DNA of 64,000 bases from contig JAQTXG010000005.1 of the NCBI GenBank assembly GCA_028688895.1, positions 1-64,000 of the forward strand. Reading direction: 5' to 3'. Source of the DNA: Candidatus Altimarinota bacterium. GTDB lineage: Bacteria > Patescibacteriota > Gracilibacteria > BD1-5 > UBA6164. Positions 36,592-53,666 of this stretch are shown here, piece after piece. The translations under genes and the position numbers were made by a program. Below the pieces are notes generated by a model. It was not told the DNA's origin. It worked only from the letters and a program-made list of their open reading frames with translations, and did not search any database. The first letter of the stretch is position 1, and the number at the start of each line of letters is the position of its first letter.

Positions 36592-36609
36592 TTAAATTGG
36601 ATATTTTTT
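36575..36609 (+). terminator. bidirectional terminator
   Basis: AAATATCCAATTTAA-TTAAATTGGATATTT palindrome followed by a T run. It covers the stop of the acetyltransferase and abuts the stop of the convergent gene. Confidence 0.9.
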
Positions 36610-38513
36610 TATTTCCCTTCACATAAAAACACATTTGGAAAATAATTTTCTTCTGGATGCATATATGAAAAAATTCTATACTTCACTATTCAAATTCTTG
36701 ATGCTATATTTTCACATTTAGTATCTAAATATTTCATAACATCTACATTTACCAAATCCCTAGTACTTCAAACTACTATTATCTGTTCATTTTTATCTAA
36801 TATATCAAAGAAATTTAAATCATTTTCCAAAAATTTTTTTGTAGATTTATTAGAATTATATAATTCATCAAAATTGGTTCCAGAATCTCTATTGTTATTA
36901 TAAAATATGAAAGATTTATTAGAATAATTTTTTACATATTTACTCAAATAATAATTATCGTCCCAATTTATTCATCAATCAGCTAATCTAAGTAAAACTA
37001 TATTATCAAAATTATCAAAAATATAATCAAAAGCTTTTACGTTATCAGGCTTAGCAGCTCTAAAATGTATCCTAGTTCATTCTATATTTTGCCAATTTGC
37101 TTGTGATAATTTAGTAAAAGGTTGAAATTGTGGTAAATATGGAAACTGCAATGGTATAAATATAATAGTAATAAAAACTAAAAGATAATAATTCTTCTTT
37201 TCTCAATTATTTATTACAATTAACCAAATATAATAAATTAATATACTTACATAAAAAATAAATATTCATTGAATCAAAGCTATGTATCTAAAATCTTCAT
37301 ATCTATTAAAAAAATACAATGAAAAAATAATCGGTACAAAAAGCGAAAAAATCAAAAATAAATTCTTATATATCTTTTTATAACTCAAGAATAACAATGA
37401 TATCAATAAAAATTCTAGTGAAAATCATAAATTGAAAGGATTAGATAAATGAGATAAATATATTTTAATAGGGCTAAAAAAATCAATCTTTAAATTTATC
37501 ATATTTTGTATACCAAATGGCATTTTAAACAAAGTGATGAATCAAATAGAGTTTAAAACAAAAATAATTCATAATAAAACAAATATTAGATATATAGGAT
37601 AATATTTTTTAAATTTAAATGTATTTAAAATAGTAATAAATAAAACAAAAGCTAATAATGGAAATAGCATTATAATTGTAGCATGAAATTCAAACAATCA
37701 AATTATAAATATGATAATAGAGGTAGAAGAATAAACTAATTTATCTTTTATTTTGCTAGACTTAAATAATTTATATAAAAAATAAAACAAAATTAAACTT
37801 ATGATGATTAAAAATACATAAGCTCTTAAAAATCTAGAAAAATACAAAACTATGTCATTTACAGAATAAATATACATAGAAATCAATCAAATAACTGCAT
37901 TTCAAGTTATTTTAATTACTATGTAATATATCAAAAATAATCATAGAAATCATACAATTGCAACAGGCAATCTAGAAGAAAATTCTGATAATCAAAATAT
38001 TTGCTGAGAATAACTAGTAACAATAGATAGTGACAAGTTCCTGTCAGTCCATTTTGCATCTCATACTTCATCATACAAAAAATCCCATCTAGCGAATTCT
38101 CCAGTCTGAGAGTAGGTATACGCAGGTGAAAAATGATATTTTTCATCTTGATGAAATGGAGTACTTCAAAGATTGATAAAAATATTTGAAAAACAAATAA
38201 TAGTTATTAAGATAAAAAAACTCAAATAAACTTTTCATTGATTAGTTATATTCTGATATAGAGATTTATGATTAGAAATAAATTTTTCATTTATTATATC
38301 AGATTCAATTAATGATATTTTATATCTAATAGTATAAAATACCAAACTTAAAAATACTAAAGTCAAAATTAACAATCAATACTGAATATTTATAGAGTCT
38401 CATACAATACTTGCATACTTAGTTTTTACAAAAAAACTAAACAACAATGATATAGCAAACAAAAACAAAAAAATATTTTTGATTATTTTAAAAAATTTTT
38501 CTTTTGATAACAT
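36609..38513 (-). CDS. membrane glycosyltransferase, GT39/GT83 (PMT/ArnT-like)
   Basis: A 634-residue protein with around 10-12 membrane segments. After a few N-terminal segments comes TPFHQDEKYHFSPAY, whose QDE is the acidic catalytic loop of PMT/ArnT-like GT-C enzymes, then RNLSLSIVTSYS and LPVAIVGFLGLF. The C-terminal 150 residues form a soluble tail. Such enzymes take a sugar from a polyprenyl-phosphate donor outside the membrane and put it on proteins or glycans. The GtrB-like gene at 30263 could make the donor. Confidence 0.85.
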
Positions 38514-38820: not shown

Positions 38821-40362
38821 ATGAAAAAAATTCTATTTTATTTATCTATATCAATTATATTCATTTATTGAATATATATCAGATATTATGAATTATGAAC
38901 ATGATCCTTTTGGATAGATGAAGGATACAGTTCCATTATTTCATTTTTTTCAAATATAAACAATTTCAATCCATACTTACCAACATGAAAATATGATTTT
39001 TCACAATACTTGTTTACCTTTTTTCAAACATTAAGCTTTAAGTTATTTTGAATATCAGATTATTCAGCAAGATTAACTAGTTTCATATTATCTATATTAA
39101 ACATGATTGTGTATTTAATATTTTCTATCGAATTATTAAAAAATAAAAAAAATAATTTGATTTGAATTATATTTTTATTTTTCATATATGTTTTTTCTAC
39201 GTGGCAGATAATATGGGCTAGAGAAGCCAGATTTTATGAACTATTATCATTTATATACTTTATAAACATTTATTTTATATGGAAATACGCTAATACAAAC
39301 AAAATATTTTATTTTTTACTATATCTAGTATTTACTTTATCATGAATAATATTTCATCCGTTTTGTTTTTGACTTATTGTAATATGAATAATTATTATAC
39401 TGTACAAGATATTTATTGAAAAAAATAGAGCAAAAATTGGATATTTTACATGAATTGTAGTAATATTAATAATATACTATTTAATAGATTTATGATTTAA
39501 CTATATTTCTATATGAAATATATATACATGAGAAAGCGTTCCAAGTATTAATAGTATATGAAAATATAATTACTTAATGTTTTTTAATTTTTATCTAAAA
39601 AGTTTATATTCTCAATTATGAATAATACTTATTTCATTTATATTATGAATTATATACTTTACTTATAGAAAAAAGCACTTAAATTTGATTATTTTTTGAT
39701 GAGTATTTTTGATAAATATTTTGTTAATTCCATATTGATATATGGCTCATTCTAGATATATGTATCATATATATTCTATAATTACTCTTATATGATGATA
39801 CAACATTATTTTATTGTATAACTATTTATCCGAAGAACTAAACATAGATTACAGAAAAATAATAACTTCATTATTTATTATAGTTACTATATTTTGAATT
39901 TATAAAACATACAATATTACAATCCTAGCTCAAAGATATTATTATATTGATTATACGTCACCAAAGCCAAATTTCAAAATGGCATATAAATATTTAGATG
40001 AAAACTTTATAGATTACAAAATAATTTCAGGTTTCCCTCAATTATGTTATTGGTATAACATAAATAATATTGAAAGATGTAGCTATGCAATAAATATAAA
40101 TCTATTATGAGAGAATGATTTAAATGACATATTAAATAAAAATCAAAAAGAAAATTATACTAATATATCATATATAAATAATATTAATGATATCGAAAAT
40201 TTAAGATTATATTTCTTTGTAATCGATGATCTAACTCTAAAAAATGCAATAAATAAGGATCTAATACAACAAATTAAAACAAAATGCACGATGATTTACA
40301 AAGATATTTGAAATTATGAAACTTCAAATTTTATATGAATTTGGAAATGTGCTTATAATTAA
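38821..40362 (+). CDS. membrane glycosyltransferase, GT39-like (PMT_2)
   Basis: A 513-residue polytopic protein with about 9-11 membrane segments. After the first segment comes GTGSFWIDEGYSSII near residue 38; the acidic DE pair is the catalytic loop of PMT_2/GT-C enzymes. WQIIWAREARFYELLSFI near residue 125 matches the second conserved loop (REAR), and MAHSRYMYHIYS is a third. The C-terminus is soluble. It probably glycosylates a surface polymer or protein from a lipid-linked donor. It is transcribed away from the other GT39-like gene. Confidence 0.87.
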
Positions 40363-41862: not shown

Positions 41863-42807
41863 TTAATACATAATCCCATAAAAAAACTTTATATGTTCAA
41901 ATCATTCACTATTTTTCACTTTTTCATATACAGCTTTAAGAGTCTCATATCACTCTGCATGTTTATTTTCAGATTTAAGTATTTCTAGAGCCAATCAGAT
42001 TTTTTTTCATGAACCTAGTAGTTGTCATAAATAATGATTTCTAGAATTACCGAAACAAGTAGCAACTATATCTCATCCAAGAGAATAATAAGAAAAATCC
42101 AAATCATCACTACCTCCATACAATTTAATAATTTCCTTCATCTCATCATAAAATTGTAGCAAACGATAACCTATACTTGATTTTCACTCACCTTTTCACT
42201 CATAGTATCAAACCATTATAGCCATTATATTTTTCAAACTACCATACAATTCTATGTTCAAAATATTTGTTTGAACTTTTATTTTTAAATAATCATTTTC
42301 TAAAAATGATTTTATTTTATTTCAGATTTCTACATTTTTTATTCATAAATCTGCTCAAAGTGTCTTTCACTCTATCACTTCTGCTGCTATCATTCATCAT
42401 GATAATACACTATAATTGTATTGTTTTCAAACCATTATTTCATCTACTAGTTCACTAATTAACTTATTAGATTTTATATCTATTCACTTAGCCAAATTCA
42501 AAATAGTAACTCCAGGTTTCAATTTATCTTTTATAGAATTCAAACTACTAGAAATAAATTGAACTGGAATAGCAATAATAATCAAATCAATTTCAGATAA
42601 CAAATCATCATAATTTTTAACCAAATTTATATTTTCAGGCAATTTATAACCAGCAAAAAAATAAGGATGTTCTCTAGTATTCTGGATAGAATCAACAATC
42701 TCTTTATTCAATTCAAAAGCATAAAAACTATGATTGGGACTATTTTCTCACAACAGCTTATTCATAGCAAAACCAAAAGCTCAAAGTCAAAGTGTAAGTA
42801 TTTTCAT
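41863..42807 (-). CDS. gpsA: glycerol-3-phosphate dehydrogenase [NAD(P)+]
   Basis: A 314-residue GpsA that reduces dihydroxyacetone phosphate to sn-glycerol-3-phosphate. Seen are the N-terminal loop LTLGLGAFGFAMNKLL, IIIAIPVQFI, ILNLAKGID, SVLSGGMIAAEV (the substrate-site SGPxxAxE region, here SGGMIAAE), ELYGSLKNIMAIMVGYYEG with the catalytic Lys, and NSRNHYLGQLL. In most bacteria this feeds phospholipids; here TagD could use the product for CDP-glycerol. It is a single minus-strand gene, 90 bases downstream of a terminator. Confidence 0.95.
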
Positions 42808-42866
42808 AAAAAAAATTAATTTATAATAAAAACTAGTATATATAAATGTAAATATATGTAAAATAA

Positions 42867-42900
42867 AAAAATATCATACAAAATTGTATGATATTTTTTA
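42867..42900 (-). terminator. terminator of the surface nuclease gene
   Basis: AAAAAATATCATACAA-AA-TTGTATGATATTTTTT, perfect stem of 16 pairs, immediately after the stop at 42898 on the minus strand. Confidence 0.9.
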
Positions 42901-45687
42901 AAGCATCTTCTCTTTCCTCAACAACATCAAAATCAATAAAACTCAAAAAACTCAAATCAAAATATAAATAATTATAGAATTTTGACTTCAAAAATCCAAA
43001 ACTTCTGTTTGTTCTATTTTTTTCTCATAATCTTCATCTTCCTTTGAAGACGCCTCTGCTTTTGGAACTATCGTAGTTTTTTTAGCTTTCTTTGGAGTCT
43101 GATAAAAATTAACTATATATTCTCATATATTTAATTCCCCATTATCTCACAAAACAGCCAAATAAACCTTATAATTTCCAAACCTCTCATACTTGATACC
43201 TTTTGGATTTTTTCACTCAAATTTTTGTCCATTTCAAAAATCCCAACTATATTTTTGTATGTTTCAAGTACTTTCAGATCAATCAAAATTTATACTACAA
43301 GTATCAAAACATGTAATACTATTCCCAGTAATAGTTTTATTTTTTCAAATCTTTCACTGAATTGTTATGATCGATTCTATACTACCAGTAGAAACTAAAC
43401 TAGTACTTTTATCAACGACTTTTTTACTCGAAATAATAACTGATGTACTGCTATTTAATCACCAAATTCATAGATTTTGTTTTTTAGCAACTGATTCTGC
43501 TTTTTTATATTCTTCACTATACTTAAAATCATAATCCAAATACGCTTTTGCATATCACAATTCTATCAATTTTTTATTAAAACTTTCTCAATCCACATAA
43601 ACAAATCATAACAATCTAGCATAATTATCACGAAAATTGTTTGGATCCATTTCCACATCTACTTCTAGTCCTGATATTGTGTCATTTACAAAATCATAAG
43701 CTTCTTGTCAAAACTCTTGTATTTCTTTATTGGGATTTTTTGTCTCTGGAGTATCAATACCTATAAGTCTCATATTTTCTACTTTATTTGTAGATAAAAA
43801 TTGTACTTTAACAGTATCTCAATCTATTACTTCTACTACTTTAGCTTTTCAAGAAAATACATCCAATCTAGAATGATCCAAATAAAATCCATCTTTTACT
43901 TTGAAATCCCGAGCCAATTTATCTATAAGTAGATCTTTACAAAATAAATTTACTTCATCCAAATCATTATTTAGATTTATTTTTGTAACTTCCTTTAGAT
44001 ATTTCTTTGTTTCTCATTTTTTAATTATTTCTCCTGTAGAAAACTTGAAAGCCTTACTTCATCAATCAATTATATCATCCAATTTACAAATACTTAAATC
44101 CAAATCTAGCTCTCAATTATTGATTATTTCAATAAATTCCAAATCATCACTTCATGCAGGATTTGGCAACAATTTATGAAGCTTTAATCCAGAATAATCT
44201 GATAAAACATCAGTATTTCAATAAGGAATGACATACATCAACTCTTTATTATCTTCATTTATTACTTCATCTTTGATTTCCTCTTCTATCACTTTTTGTT
44301 CAACTTGGATATTAGTAAAATTGAGTTCTGTGATATTATAATTATTTTCATTTCAATACTCATAAACCTTCAATTTTACCTCAAAAAATCCATTTCAATA
44401 CTTAACATATCCAGGATTACATTTAAATTGTGTTCCAGAATCAAAAATAGCATTTCAAAAATCCCATATACATCTTTCCCTTGAATTTTTTAATTCATAA
44501 TTCAAATTTATACTACAAGATTTTTTGTTTGTACATTCATTTTTATCATTTATACCACTTTGAATAATTATTTGAGGCTTACTAATATTTAAAGAACTAT
44601 TATCAGTATAAATATTACTTACATATACTGTTGAAGAACTAACAACAGGTTTTATATATCATTTATTGACCACTTTAAAGGATTTTTCTATAAAATTTTC
44701 TAGATTATTTTTATTTATTATCTGTACTTTAAAATCAAATGTTCAAATAGGTACAACTATAGTATTTGGATTACATTTATCTCATTCACTAGTTTCAAAT
44801 CAAAAATCTATTTTACACAAATAATCTGATTCACTGAAATCTCAAACAAAACTATTTCTCAAATCTAGATTTATTTTACACTCTTCTTTACTAGTATCAC
44901 AATTATAAACATCAACTATTTCTTCTTTCTCCAATAAATAAGTAGGTACTTGAAAACTATATTCTATTTCTGGTAATAAAATAAAATTGTTATTTATATT
45001 TTCCACTATATTTCAACTAGAACTAACTGTATTGTTATCAACTGTTCCAGATTGAGTATTAATCCATTCTGTATCATTATTTTCTGTAACTATAGAGCCA
45101 GTTTCAGTTTCAATAGTTGAATCTATAGAACCTGTTTCAGTAGAATTATCATCAGAATCCATGACACTTCAAGTTTGTGATTGTGTATTATCAATATCCA
45201 GACTTCATGTAGAACTTAATACTTCCTCATTTACATCCAAACTGCCAGATTGCGTATCTTGAGTGTTAGAATCTGCTTCACCTAACACTTCTGTAGTATT
45301 TATATAATCATAAATAACTATTACTTTTCATTTTTCACTTGTAGCATAAGTATAACTATCTAGCAAATTTCAAAAATTGTCATACAAAAACAATTGTTCA
45401 TCACTATTATTTAATAATAATTTAGTCTCATTTCTAAAATATTTTTTCCTTTCTTGTACATTCAAAAAATATGTTTCGTCAAAAACAAACTCCTTTTCAG
45501 AAGTATCCTTCAATATATATCCACTCAAAAACAAAACTTGATCAGAATTATTATACAACTCTATATATTCCAGATTAGCATCATCATCTGTATTTGGAAA
45601 TATTTCAGAAATATTCAAGTTTCAAAATACTTGAGATATTAAAACAACAAAAAATCATAAAAGTAAAAATAAATTTCTAAATTTCAT
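42898..45687 (-). CDS. membrane-anchored surface nuclease: LTD - PKD - LTD - SNase - PKD - TM
   Basis: A 929-residue protein. Signal peptide at 1-22, then a lamin-tail-like domain (about 22-115: NISEIFPNTDDDANLEYIELYN). A Ser/Thr/Gly-rich linker with SGS/TGS repeats lies at about 125-215, then PKD-like beta domains with CxWDFG and CKIDFG motifs (about 235-480). A second lamin-tail domain follows (from about 500: LHKLLPNPAGSDDLEFIEI). The staphylococcal-nuclease domain lies at about 605-735 with VIDGDT, RLIGIDTPE and DNYARLLG, so all catalytic Asp/Arg/Glu are present. A last PKD and a C-terminal membrane helix end it. It likely degrades nucleic acid outside the cell. Confidence 0.9.
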
Positions 45688-45770: not shown

Positions 45771-46799
45771 CTATCTAAAAAATTTATTCCACAAAATCCT
45801 AACAGCTATATTTATAGCATTTCATGAAGATTGTCACTTCTTTAATGAATATTCAGTGTATTTGATAGTAACAGGCACTTCTTTGTATGGTATTTTTTGA
45901 CAAGAAATAATATCCAATATCTCTGAAGCATGTGTCATACCATCTTGTGTAATCCTGATTTTATCGAGTATTTTGGTTCTAATTACTCTATAACCATTAT
46001 GAGTATCAGTTAAGTTTATATTACTTATGAAAAATGTGAACAGTATTCAAAGTTTCAAAACCATTCTTCTAACAAATGGAATTCATACCTCTTTTTTTCA
46101 CAAAAATCTACTACCAAGCAATACATCTATACTATGATGCTCTTTTAATATTTTTTCAAATGATTTCAGATCTTCCAAACTATGTTGTCAATCAGCATCA
46201 TAAGTAATAACATAATCTATATTTCAATACCTTCTTACATATTCAAATCCAGTCTCAAGTGCTGCTCACTGTCACCTATTTTTCAAATGATTTAATAGAA
46301 TTATTTTGTCTCAAAATTTTTCCAAATGATGCCTAGTATTATCTTTTGATCAATCATTTACAACTATTATATTTTTGTATCAACTATCCAAAATATTTTT
46401 CACAGTGTGATAAACTACTTTTCACTCATTATAAGCAGGTATAACAAATACTTCTTTTCAATTTATTTCATTTTTTGCTGAAAATTCTAGTGCGATTCAT
46501 CTGACAAGCTGTGTAATGTCTTCTTTATTTCCTACATGTTTACCCAATAATAAAAGTACAAAATAAAGCAAAAATATGATAGAAGCATAAACCAAAACAT
46601 CAGCTCATCTAGCTACTCAAAATACATTTCAAATATCATTTAAAACATTTGGAAAATATGTAAATATTAACAATCAACCTCAGATAGAAATAAAAACCAA
46701 AAAATGAAGAGCATTAAACTTCTGCTTATTAGCTATATCTAATGCAAGTATCAATATTATTATTCACGAAATCGTAAAGAAAAAATCTAGTAGTGTCAT
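45771..46799 (-). CDS. DUF2304-GT2 fusion, polyprenyl-phosphate sugar transferase
   Basis: A 342-residue protein joining two modules often found as neighbouring genes. Residues 1-105 form three hydrophobic helices with a conserved middle loop (GVARGADVLVYASIIFLLYF), matching DUF2304. Residues about 130-342 are a DPM1-type GT2: VFVIPAYNEGKVVYHTV, IIVVNDGSKDNT, YVITYDADGQHSLED as the DxD site, and a C-terminal PVTIKYTEYSLKKGQSS. It would make a polyprenyl-phosphate sugar. The fused helices likely tether the enzyme to the membrane. Confidence 0.88.
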
Positions 46800-46984: not shown

Positions 46985-48997
46985 TTATATAGATTTCTCA
47001 CTTTTTTCAAATAATTCTTCTATATCTTCTCTGATTTGTGATATAAGCTCTAAATCTCTCAAATCAGCAACCTTTAAATCTGGTACTCATGATTGCCTCA
47101 AACCATATACTTCTCCTGGTCATCTCAACTCCAAATCTATCTCAGCCAATTCAAAACCATTATTAGTTGATTCCATAGCTTTGAGTCTATCAGTTTGATT
47201 ACCACTTGTAGGAAACAAATAACAATATGATTGATAAGCTCATCTACCTACTCTTCATCTAAATTGATGCAGTTGTGATAGTCAAAATCTCTCTGCTCAT
47301 TCTATACACATTATTGAAGCATTTGGTATATTTACTCATACTTCTACTACTGATGTACTAGACAATATCTGTATTTTATTCTCAGAAAATTCTCTCATTA
47401 CTTCATCTTTTTCTTTTGGTTTCATCTTACCATGCAACAATCCTACTCTAAAAGGATGAAATATTCATATAAGCGATTCATATGTAGAAATAGCATTTGC
47501 CAAATCTATTTTTTCTGATTCTTCTACTAGTGGAGATATCCAAAATACTTGTCTACCTTGTTCCAATTGAGATCTAACAAATAATTCTATCTCTGATCTT
47601 TGAATATCATTTTTAGCTACTTTTGTATATATTTCCTTTCTACCTTTTGGATACTGTGAAATAATAGACAAATCCTGGTCTCCATATAGTGTCAAAGCCA
47701 AAGTTCTAGGAATAGGTGTAGCCGTCATATTGAGACTATGAGGAATCAATCAAGACTTATTTCAAAATCATCTTTCCAATACTTCTCTTTGTTTTACTCA
47801 AAATCTATGTTGTTCATCCACAACCACAAATCACAAATTATAAAAACTTACATCCTCCTGCACCAAAGCATGTGTACCTATAACCAAATCTATATTTCCA
47901 GTTTTTAAATCAGACTTTACAGCTTCTTTTTGTTTTTTTGTCAAACTACCTACAAGCAAATGTGAACTAATATTGTATTTCATAAGCAATTCCTGCATAG
48001 ATTCAAAATGCTGTCTAGCTAGTATTTCAGTAGGTGCCATAATTGCGACCTGGATACGAGAAGAACTACTCTCAATTATCCCATGAATACTTGCTATCAA
48101 TGCAACAGCAGTTTTACCTGTTCATACATCTCACTCCAAAAGTCTCTGCATACTGTGAGGCTTTTCCATATCCTTTAGTATTTGAAAAAGTACTATTTTT
48201 TGATGATCAGTTAAATCAAACGGCATGTTTGAAATAATATCCTTTACAGTTTCAGCATTCATTTTGATAGCTAAAGATTTACCTTCTGTATTTTTAAAAC
48301 TTTCATATTTAGTAGATATAGCTCTATGATTTATCTCATAAAGTTCTCCATAAGCAAGCCTATGTTTAGCTAATTCTATATCATGTTTATTTTTAGGAAA
48401 ATGTACCTTGTAAACTGCTTCTTTTTTAGATATAAAATTGTATTTTTTTATTATTGATTCTGGTAAATCTTCTACTATTTCAGAAACATATTTTTTTAAC
48501 AATTCTACTTTTCCAGAAGTCCATTTACTAGGTATATAGTTTATATCACTATAAACAGGAACTATTTCACCTGATACTTTTGATAAATCAGTCTCTACTT
48601 CTGGTGATTGAAAAGTAATTTTACCAAAAGCGTATTTTACTTTTCAAGAAACTATTACTTTTTTTCAAGTATAAGCTTGCAAAGTCGTAGCTAGATATTT
48701 CCTATTAAACCAAACAGACTCAGACAAAAAACCATTTTTATCTTCGAGAACTGCTTTTGAAATAAGCTTACCTCAACCAGTCATTTGAGTATTTATAGAT
48801 ACAAGTGTAACCAAAATAGTATTTTTATCCTTTATATTTATAAGTGAAAAATTATCAAGCACATTGGTCCTATCCTCATATTCACGTGGATACTGATTTA
48901 ACAAATCTCAAACAGTACAAACACCACCCTTTTCCAGAGCTTTTATATAATTATCAGTAGTATGTAAAAGTGATTTTGTCAGTGGAGTATTTAGCAT
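46985..48997 (-). CDS. recG: ATP-dependent DNA helicase RecG
   Basis: A 670-residue RecG, normal length. It remodels stalled replication forks and Holliday junctions. The N-terminal wedge/OB region includes [15 protein letters not shown]-like [16 protein letters not shown]. Then come the helicase motifs: the Walker A segment in GDVxxGKTAVAL, [15 protein letters not shown], the DEQHRFGVKQRE motif [20 protein letters not shown] motif [18 protein letters not shown], and the TSVVEVGVNIPNAS and QFRGRVGRG motifs. The stop is just beside the GC-rich element. Confidence 0.96.
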
Positions 48998-52092: not shown

Positions 52093-52127
52093 CTCAAAAA
52101 AAGCTAGATAAACTAGCTTTTTTTGTG
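52093..52127 (+). terminator. bidirectional terminator
   Basis: AAAAAAAGCTAG-ATAAA-CTAGCTTTTTTT, perfect stem with T tail; also covers the stop of the convergent ATPase gene. Confidence 0.9.
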
Positions 52128-53666
52128 TTCAAATTTCTCAATTATTTCTACAAATATTTTGTACAGATTATCATCATATCAATTATTTTTACTCAACCAT
52201 ATAGATAAATTGAATGCTATAGTTGGCTTAGAATATTTATAAAAGTAAGTATTAAATAATTTCTCATATTCTGTAGATATTTTTTTTACTGATTTAAGTC
52301 TATCTAACATATCATCCAAATGTCTCAAACTCATTTCATGTATTTTTTGATCAAAATCTGCTCAAAATCTCTCTTTTCTTTTGTTTATTTTATCTGTTAG
52401 ATAACTTTTTATAGAATCTATTTTGTAATAATTTTCAAATTCTCAATCGAGAACAATCCAATTATATTTTTTAAACTCTTTTTCAGAAACACTTGAAACA
52501 TGATGTACTTTTTTGATAGATTTCTCTATTTTATCGAAATCTACTTCATAACTCTCATCTTTATCTATAACAGCAACCACATTTTGTTTTCAAAACAATT
52601 CAGATGCAAACATATACCATTCATGCAATGCTCATTTACCTCATACATCTATTACACTTATATTTTTATAATTTAGATTAAAATAATTTTGTTTTTCATC
52701 ACTTGATAATTTTTTTCATTTTAAATCCAAATATTTATGCATATCTATGTTTTCATAAATATTTGGCACTGATATCCTCTCTGTTTCTCATTCCACTAAA
52801 ATAACAGCATCAGAAAAAAATATAGAACTATTCTTGAATATCAAATTTATCATTATTTTATTATACCTACCATATGAATTATTTATCCTTTTTGTAATAG
52901 TATTTCAATCTACATTATTAACAAATACTATATCAGAAATCTCATATATTCATTTCTTGAAATTTGAAACCAATTCACCAGAATGAGTAGAATACAATAT
53001 TTGAGTATTTTCCAATTCTCAAATTTGAAGCAATATTGTATCTATCATCTTGGTAGCATGTGGATGCAAAAAATTTTCAGGCTGATCTATCAAAAAAACA
53101 TTATAATCATCATTATTTGTATTATTTATACTATACAAATACAATTCCAACAAACTAATCAAGAGAGTTGTTTTTCTCTTTCATGATTCCAAATCTAGAG
53201 CTTCCAATTTTTCTTTTTTCTTTTTTAATATCACCTTACTTTGTTCTTTATTTTCAAGTATCAAATCAATCAATTTCATATAACCATTTTCTTTTTTATC
53301 TTTGTTGATTTTTCTATCACTAGGTATATATATGATATTAAGTTTTTCAAATATTTTCTTTGTCTCTTTATCTGGAATTATGTTTCTAGTAATTACTTCT
53401 TTTCAATCAAAATAGGCTTCAGTTCTAACTATGAAATCTTTTCAATCATGATTTACAACTGACTCCAATATCAAAACTTCCTCAGAGTTTTTAAAATCCT
53501 TTTCTTTTATATCTTTAGAATTAAAAAGTTTCTCTATTGCTTTCAAAACAACAGTTTTACCACTACCATTTTTTCAAACAAAAACAGTTTTATTTACTCA
53601 AATAACTATTGTTTCATCTACTATTGTCCTAAAATTTTGTATCTTTATGTTTTTTATTTGGAACAT
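52113..53666 (-). CDS. OLD-family ATP-binding protein (AAA_15/TOPRIM)
   Basis: A 517-residue protein with an SMC/ABC-like split ATPase: N-terminal strand IKNIKIQNFRTI, Walker A GKNGSGKTVVLKAI near residue 40, a helical insertion, then Walker B-like NVFLIDQPENFLHPHATK with a signature region, followed by a C-terminal TOPRIM-like domain (about 330-517: NVVAVIDKDESYEVDF, then WIVLDWEFENYY). OLD proteins are nucleases used in DNA repair or antiphage defence. No partner such as GajB is next to it, so a lone OLD function is assumed. Confidence 0.85.

What the first reader, a model, noticed from the sequence alone, without database searches (positions are those of the whole stretch)
42898..45687. 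Surface nuclease with lamin-tail, PKD and SNase domains plus C-terminal membrane helix
One 929-residue protein combines a signal peptide, two lamin-tail-like domains, PKD-like beta domains, a full staphylococcal nuclease with catalytic Asp, Arg and Glu intact, and a C-terminal anchor. An episymbiont that cannot make nucleotides could use it to digest host or environmental nucleic acid at its surface. Lamin-tail domains may bind DNA or cell walls.
Basis: partly seen in the sequence, partly recalled or inferred. Interest (0 to 1): 0.68.

Follow-up and report, generated by a model that had tools for sequence, protein, structure and literature searches.

The report
Membrane-anchored surface nuclease, optional module
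A tiny uncultured bacterium that reads the stop codon TGA as glycine carries on its surface a membrane-anchored nuclease with an intact active site, probably for cutting up nearby DNA or RNA; it resembles known surface nucleases, but here the cutting domain is an optional part that many sister species lack and one has kept in a dead form.

Summary
Window 42898-45687, minus strand, is one 929-aa frame, open only with TGA read as glycine (40 in-frame TGA). It holds a signal peptide, LTD, acidic S/T-rich linker, two Cys-rich PKD-like domains, a second LTD, staphylococcal nuclease (SNase), PKD and a C-terminal membrane helix with a basic tail. The SNase active site is complete and its predicted fold (pLDDT 89) matches solved SNase (TM about 0.8). 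Most likely it is an active nuclease held outside the membrane, similar in function to Haloferax Hvo_1477 (LTD + SNase; deletion impairs growth on DNA). New here: the locus recG-GT2-[gene] is conserved across sister genera, but the nuclease is optional. Many orthologues at the same site lack it, only 22 of 48 family genomes have any SNase, and one congener (G119) keeps the domain with its catalytic residues lost while carrying a separate exported SNase. ComEC is in 47 of 48 genomes, so the nuclease is not tied to competence. 'Cannot make nucleotides' is not supported: pyrC, pyrD-like, pyrE-like and pyrF genes occur, all TGA-free, apparently recent imports. Activity, localisation and substrate are inferred, not shown.

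The parts
42898..45687 (-). whole gene, 929 aa under code 25 (TGA = Gly)
   Evidence: chance of an open frame this long about 3e-33
45622..45687 (-). N-terminal signal peptide, residues 1-22 (MKFRNLFLLLGFFVVLISQVFG)
   Evidence: hydropathy peak at residues 2-27 after K/R; cleavage site inferred; no SignalP run
45343..45627 (-). lamin-tail domain 1, residues 21-115
   Evidence: Pfam PF00932, above cut-off
44983..45336 (-). acidic, Ser/Thr-rich linker, residues 118-235 (29% S+T, net charge -21), repeated TGS motifs
   Evidence: poorly conserved among orthologues
44302..44982 (-). two Cys-rich PKD-like beta domains, residues 236-462 (C263, C270, C291, C305; C385, C391, C406, C423)
   Evidence: conserved in family; no Pfam match
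43858..44196 (-). lamin-tail domain 2, residues 498-610
   Evidence: PF00932 27.3 bits alone, below cut-off; adjoins SNase in many relatives
43444..43857 (-). staphylococcal nuclease domain, residues 611-748; D622, D624, R640, D645, T646, E648, R691
   Evidence: Pfam E 8e-25; S. aureus nuclease structures are best PDB hits by sequence and by predicted fold, pLDDT 89.4; catalytic positions invariant or nearly so in 39 aligned SNases, T646 excepted
43084..43374 (-). PKD domain, residues 772-868
   Evidence: PF18911 E 4.5e-9
42901..42987 (-). C-terminal transmembrane helix and basic tail, residues 901-929
   Evidence: hydropathy up to 3.2; helix in the otherwise poor full-length model
42866..42899 (-). 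AT-rich hairpin followed by a T run straight after the stop: likely terminator
   Evidence: -14.1 kcal/mol, z -6.2
45771..46799 (-). upstream neighbour: DUF2304 + family-2 glycosyltransferase, polyprenyl-phosphate-sugar-synthase-like; conserved partner of the locus
   Evidence: NCBIfam PpgS 180 bits, below its cut-off of 370
46985..48997 (-). recG, syntenic upstream marker
41863..42807 (-). gpsA-like glycerol-3-phosphate dehydrogenase, syntenic downstream marker

Best explanation
A surface scaffold protein (LTD - linker - Cys-rich PKD-like domains - LTD - PKD - membrane helix) that in this species carries a catalytically competent SNase domain. Sec-type export puts the chain outside the cell and the C-terminal helix with its basic tail holds it in the membrane. 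The beta domains and linker hold the nuclease away from the membrane, where it cuts DNA and/or RNA close to the cell, most likely with Ca2+ or another divalent ion and little sugar or sequence specificity, as other SNases do. Products (oligonucleotides, nucleotides, phosphate) could be taken up, longer DNA perhaps through the type IV pilus/ComEC route. Shown: frame, domains, complete active-site residues, predicted fold, conserved locus, constraint on the domain, optional nature. Inferred: export and anchoring (sequence only), activity, metal, substrate, nutritional use. The nuclease is an accessory module, not the core job of the protein.
For: SNase active site complete; predicted fold matches solved SNase, TM 0.77-0.81, 32-37% identity. 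Between G000 and G117 the SNase is as conserved as the other domains (72% identical; dN/dS about 0.27 against about 1 in linkers; dS high, so rough). Signal peptide, 12 Cys in even, conserved sets, C-terminal helix. Orthologues with intact catalytic residues in G117 and G120 at the same locus. Optional: same syntenic gene without SNase in G101-G106 and G091-G098; 22 of 48 family genomes have any SNase; one congener with catalytic residues lost. Precedents: Hvo_1477, whose deletion gives poor growth on DNA (PMC3929857); Mycoplasma agalactiae MAG_5040, a sugar-nonspecific SNase with signal peptide (PMC3585158).
Against: No activity or localisation data for any member. The full-length model failed (pLDDT 28.8, two sequences), so domain arrangement is not modelled. 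K84 and G86 of S. aureus nuclease are Asn and Ala here. Patchy presence means no strong, constant need for the nuclease. Parts of pyrimidine synthesis are present, weakening the hunger argument. G120 has an in-frame TAA at codon 223, either a MAG error or a broken gene.
Confidence: 0.65

Rival explanations
1. Competence nuclease: it trims bound double-stranded DNA for entry through ComEC, as EndA or NucA do in other bacteria, rather than feeding the cell.
For: ComEC and at least four full-length PilB/PilT-like ATPase genes in the genome; a membrane-held nuclease lies where such an enzyme would act.
Against: ComEC is in 47 of 48 family genomes and 33 of 33 good ones, SNase in only 22 of 48: DNA uptake does not seem to require it. 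The gene is not next to competence genes.
Confidence: 0.15
2. Contact or adhesion protein in which the nuclease domain acts mainly as a nucleic-acid or host-surface binding module; catalysis is secondary and free to decay.
For: Core LTD/PKD scaffold and locus kept without SNase; G119 keeps the domain with the D21, R35, D40, T41, E43 and R87 positions all changed and 11 residues missing, yet an open frame and dN/dS of about 0.34-0.51 there.
Against: In the window and 30 other examined SNase domains D21, R35, D40, E43 and R87 are all kept, which binding alone would not demand.
Confidence: 0.15
3. Defence or attack: the surface nuclease destroys phage or neighbour/host DNA at the cell boundary.
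For: PADLOC holds a candidate defence profile 'SNc+LTD' that matches residues 612-759 (E 5e-27).
Against: Only the SNase part of that profile aligns; the locus is a housekeeping/glycosylation neighbourhood (recG, GT2, gpsA), not a defence island, and is syntenic over genera.
Confidence: 0.05

Closest known systems
Hvo_1477 of Haloferax volcanii (SNase + lamin-tail putative lipoprotein; PMC3929857, PMC5118699)
   Same: SNase joined to a lamin-tail domain in a putative cell-surface protein; deletion impairs growth on DNA, so the proposed role is supported there
   Different: Order SNase-LTD, lipobox anchor, small protein; here LTD-PKD-like-LTD-SNase-PKD, C-terminal helix, no lipobox, 929 aa, bacterium with TGA = Gly
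Staphylococcus aureus thermonuclease (PDB 1EY0 and others)
   Same: Domain fold and catalytic residues
   Different: Secreted single domain; K84 and G86 positions differ here; no scaffold
Shewanella ExeM / Vibrio Xds (LTD + EEP nuclease; PMC6085458)
   Same: Signal peptide, N-terminal LTD, nuclease, C-terminal membrane helix with basic tail; ExeM found in the cytoplasmic membrane fraction
   Different: Unrelated catalytic domain (EEP), GG rhombosortase-type site, Gram-negative
Mycoplasma SNases such as MAG_5040 (PMC3585158)
   Same: SNase with signal peptide in a reduced, host-dependent bacterium that also reads TGA as sense
   Different: TGA = Trp there; no LTD or PKD; lies beside an ABC transporter, not seen here
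Ca. Izemoplasmatales 1,049-aa nuclease with lamin-tail domain (PMC8289736)
   Same: Large protein combining nuclease, nucleic-acid-binding and LTD domains, proposed for degrading extracellular DNA
   Different: Sits in a DNA-degradation locus with probable nucleoside transporters; none seen here

Membership tests
SNase (PF00565) | profile match over cut-off | tested here: met
   87.7 bits against 21
SNase (PF00565) | SNase OB-fold | tested here: met
   model pLDDT 89.4, TM about 0.8 to S. aureus nuclease
SNase (PF00565) | catalytic D21, R35, D40, T41, E43, R87 | tested here: met
   D624, R640, D645, T646, E648, R691
SNase (PF00565) | Ca2+-dependent cleavage of DNA/RNA | not testable with these tools
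   needs an enzyme assay
Lamin-tail domain (PF00932) | LTD1 profile match over cut-off | tested here: met
   49.1 bits against 34.3 in six-frame search
Lamin-tail domain (PF00932) | LTD2 profile match over cut-off | tested here: inconclusive
   27.3 bits alone, below 34.3; two stretches counted
PKD (PF18911) | profile match for the C-terminal domain | tested here: met
   36.7 bits against 27
PKD (PF18911) | profile match for residues 236-462 | tested here: not met
   no Pfam hit to E 0.1
Hvo_1477-type LTD+SNase surface nuclease | SNase and LTD in one protein with an export signal | tested here: met
Hvo_1477-type LTD+SNase surface nuclease | lipobox (N-terminal Cys) anchor | tested here: not met
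   first Cys is residue 263
Hvo_1477-type LTD+SNase surface nuclease | needed for growth on DNA | not testable with these tools
   uncultured organism
PADLOC PDLC01096 'SNc+LTD' | profile aligned over both SNase and LTD | tested here: not met
   only profile positions 45-193 of 279, matching the SNase residues 612-759, align
Sortase-anchored wall nuclease (YhcR type) | LPXTG before the C-terminal helix | tested here: not met
   no LPXTG in the sequence

The most novel reading that the evidence does not exclude
The nuclease domain is passing, in living sister species, from enzyme to pseudoenzyme to absence while its surface scaffold and locus stay fixed: in G119 the dead SNase fold is kept under constraint as a binding module, and cutting has passed to a separate exported SNase-Excalibur protein.
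Probability: 0.3. Interest if true: 0.5.

Novelty: new variant of a known kind. Interest (0 to 1): 0.4.

Why it matters
It gives a concrete, testable enzyme by which some TGA-recoded, Gracilibacteria-like bacteria may obtain nucleic-acid building blocks, and a natural comparison set (active, dead, absent at the same locus) for asking whether surface nucleases matter to this lifestyle. It also warns that a surface nuclease is not evidence of nucleotide auxotrophy: this genome seems to have imported pyrimidine genes.

Tried and rejected
Full-length AlphaFold2 with two sequences: unusable (pLDDT 28.8). Idea that g16/g20 orthologues keep an SNase remnant after LTD2: rejected, profile comparison gave 11% probability over 14 columns. 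Suspected contamination of the genome by standard-code contigs carrying pyrF/purC: rejected, those contigs use TGA as sense and the genes are flanked by TGA-rich genes. LTD2-SNase or full-length search in plasmids and phages: no record covered most of the query; the hits listed were SNase matches. Literature searches for thermonuclease or LTD nucleases in Patescibacteria found nothing specific, within open-access papers only. Tree of the scaffold region: forks near the base of the family are unresolved and several branches are long, so the number of independent losses is given only as 'several' (at least 3 changes forced by well-supported branches for the SNase-less group; gains not excluded).

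Full report
Observation. The frame at 42898-45687 lies on the minus strand and reads through only if TGA is glycine (code 25; 40 in-frame TGA). The whole window behaves so: long frames cover 85% of it under code 25 and 0% under code 11. The nearest named relative is Patescibacteria group bacterium UBA6164 (L003), 62% identical over the full length, which fits the Gracilibacteria/BD1-5 part of the CPR; placement beyond 'Patescibacteria group' rests on the genetic code and my own knowledge.

Anatomy. Pfam finds SNase, LTD (two stretches) and a PKD domain. The first LTD passes its cut-off, the second does not alone. Residues 236-462 match no Pfam family but form a recurring family-specific unit of two Cys-rich PKD-like domains. 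There are 12 cysteines, in sets of even number, kept in orthologues, as expected outside the cell. Hydropathy gives an N-terminal signal-like stretch and one C-terminal helix with the tail LRKEKML. The linker 118-235 is acidic and 29% Ser/Thr. A strong AT-rich hairpin with a T run follows the stop, so the gene probably ends a transcription unit that may start at or before the glycosyltransferase gene upstream.

Active site. Aligned to S. aureus nuclease (E 3.5e-22), the residues corresponding to D19, D21, R35, D40, T41, E43 and R87 are D622, D624, R640, D645, T646, E648 and R691. In an alignment with 38 other SNases, mostly from viral contigs, all but T646 are invariant or nearly so. The predicted domain (pLDDT 89.4) has S. 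aureus nuclease as its top solved-structure matches.

Comparison across genomes. The gene sits in recG - DUF2304/GT2 - [gene] - gpsA in the genus members whose contigs reach that far (G117, G119, G120), and recG/GT2 stay beside it in several sister genera. Orthologues differ in domains: G000, G117 and G120 carry LTD-CysPKD-LTD-SNase-PKD-TM; genus g9 (G101-G106) has the same protein without LTD2 and SNase; g6, g16 and g20 have LTD2 or not, but no SNase. Outside the family, LTD2-SNase adjacency recurs over the class, also in standard-code lineages. In 380 genomes sampled over the phylum, no listed match outside the class spans both LTD2 and SNase, although separate SNases and separate LTDs are common (weak matches are not all listed).

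Loss and decay. Any SNase at all is found in 22 of 48 family genomes, 17 of 33 good ones. Of 32 SNase domains examined, only one, in congener G119, has lost D21, R35, D40, E43 and R87: IDGDT became IENNL, the R35, D40, T41, E43 and R87 positions became N, N, I, D and N, and 11 residues are missing. The frame is open and dN/dS of that domain stays under 1 (0.34-0.51), although its substitution rate is raised and synonymous sites are near saturation. G119 has a second, intact exported SNase with an Excalibur domain, next to hsdM; its orthologue is also in the window genome. G117 and G120, with the intact anchored enzyme, show no second one. Four genomes are too few for a statistical claim.

Mechanism. 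Most likely an anchored, divalent-metal-dependent nuclease that cuts nucleic acid near the membrane. Precedents are Hvo_1477, an LTD+SNase putative lipoprotein without which Haloferax volcanii grows poorly on DNA (PMC3929857), and mycoplasma SNases (PMC3585158). ExeM shows that an LTD can be dispensable for extracellular DNA degradation while raising activity in vitro (PMC6085458). ComEC and pilus ATPases are present, so uptake is possible, but ComEC is nearly universal in the family (47/48) while SNase is not, so the two are not coupled.

Nutrition premise. The genome holds pyrF and pyrC over NCBIfam cut-offs, a DHO-dehydrogenase-like, a PyrE-like and a PurC-like gene; AIRS_C was not found. 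ATCase, CarAB and the rest of purine synthesis were not tested. So 'cannot make nucleotides' is unproven for purines and doubtful for pyrimidines.

Glycosylation. The GT2 gene beside the locus resembles polyprenyl-phosphate-sugar synthases (best NCBIfam hit PpgS, below cut-off), PMT-like genes lie nearby, and the pairing is kept whether or not SNase is present. I infer, without test, that the Ser/Thr-rich linker is glycosylated.

Verdict. Real, anatomically as described, functionally plausible, with a functional precedent in the literature: a new variant of a known kind. The added value is the optional and decaying nuclease at a fixed locus.

Noticed in passing
G000:C43:13599-15598 (L208), G000:C28:10728-12225 (L106), G000:C38 (L107:9410-10366): pyrC + pyrD-like, pyrE-like + pyrF, and purC-like genes without a single TGA, GC 0.34-0.38, directly flanked by TGA-rich genes of lower GC: three apparent recent imports of nucleotide genes from a TGA-stop donor, not yet recoded.
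   Followed up: partly
L109:7923-8837 (G000:C32) and L115:1881-2795 (G119:C16): A second exported SNase with a C-terminal Excalibur domain, next to an hsdM-like gene in both genomes (hsdM named from sequence by eye).
   Followed up: partly
G120:C10 (L038), codon 223 of the orthologue: In-frame TAA where the orthologues have a Glu codon, in an otherwise intact gene: MAG error or nonsense mutation.
   Followed up: no
window 52113-53666: OLD/GajA-like AAA + TOPRIM nuclease, best PADLOC hits Old and GajA; no partner was sought.
   Followed up: no
window 36609-38513 and 38821-40362: Two PMT_2-like membrane glycosyltransferase genes (weak matches) near the nuclease; the second is syntenic in the genus.
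   Followed up: no
G113, G114, G123-G126 orthologues (L040, L042, L041, L047, L046, L061): After LTD2 the SNase place is taken by unrelated sequence and, in most, a beta domain with 'SGIKIxGxTFPN', also found after the SNase in g2.
   Followed up: partly
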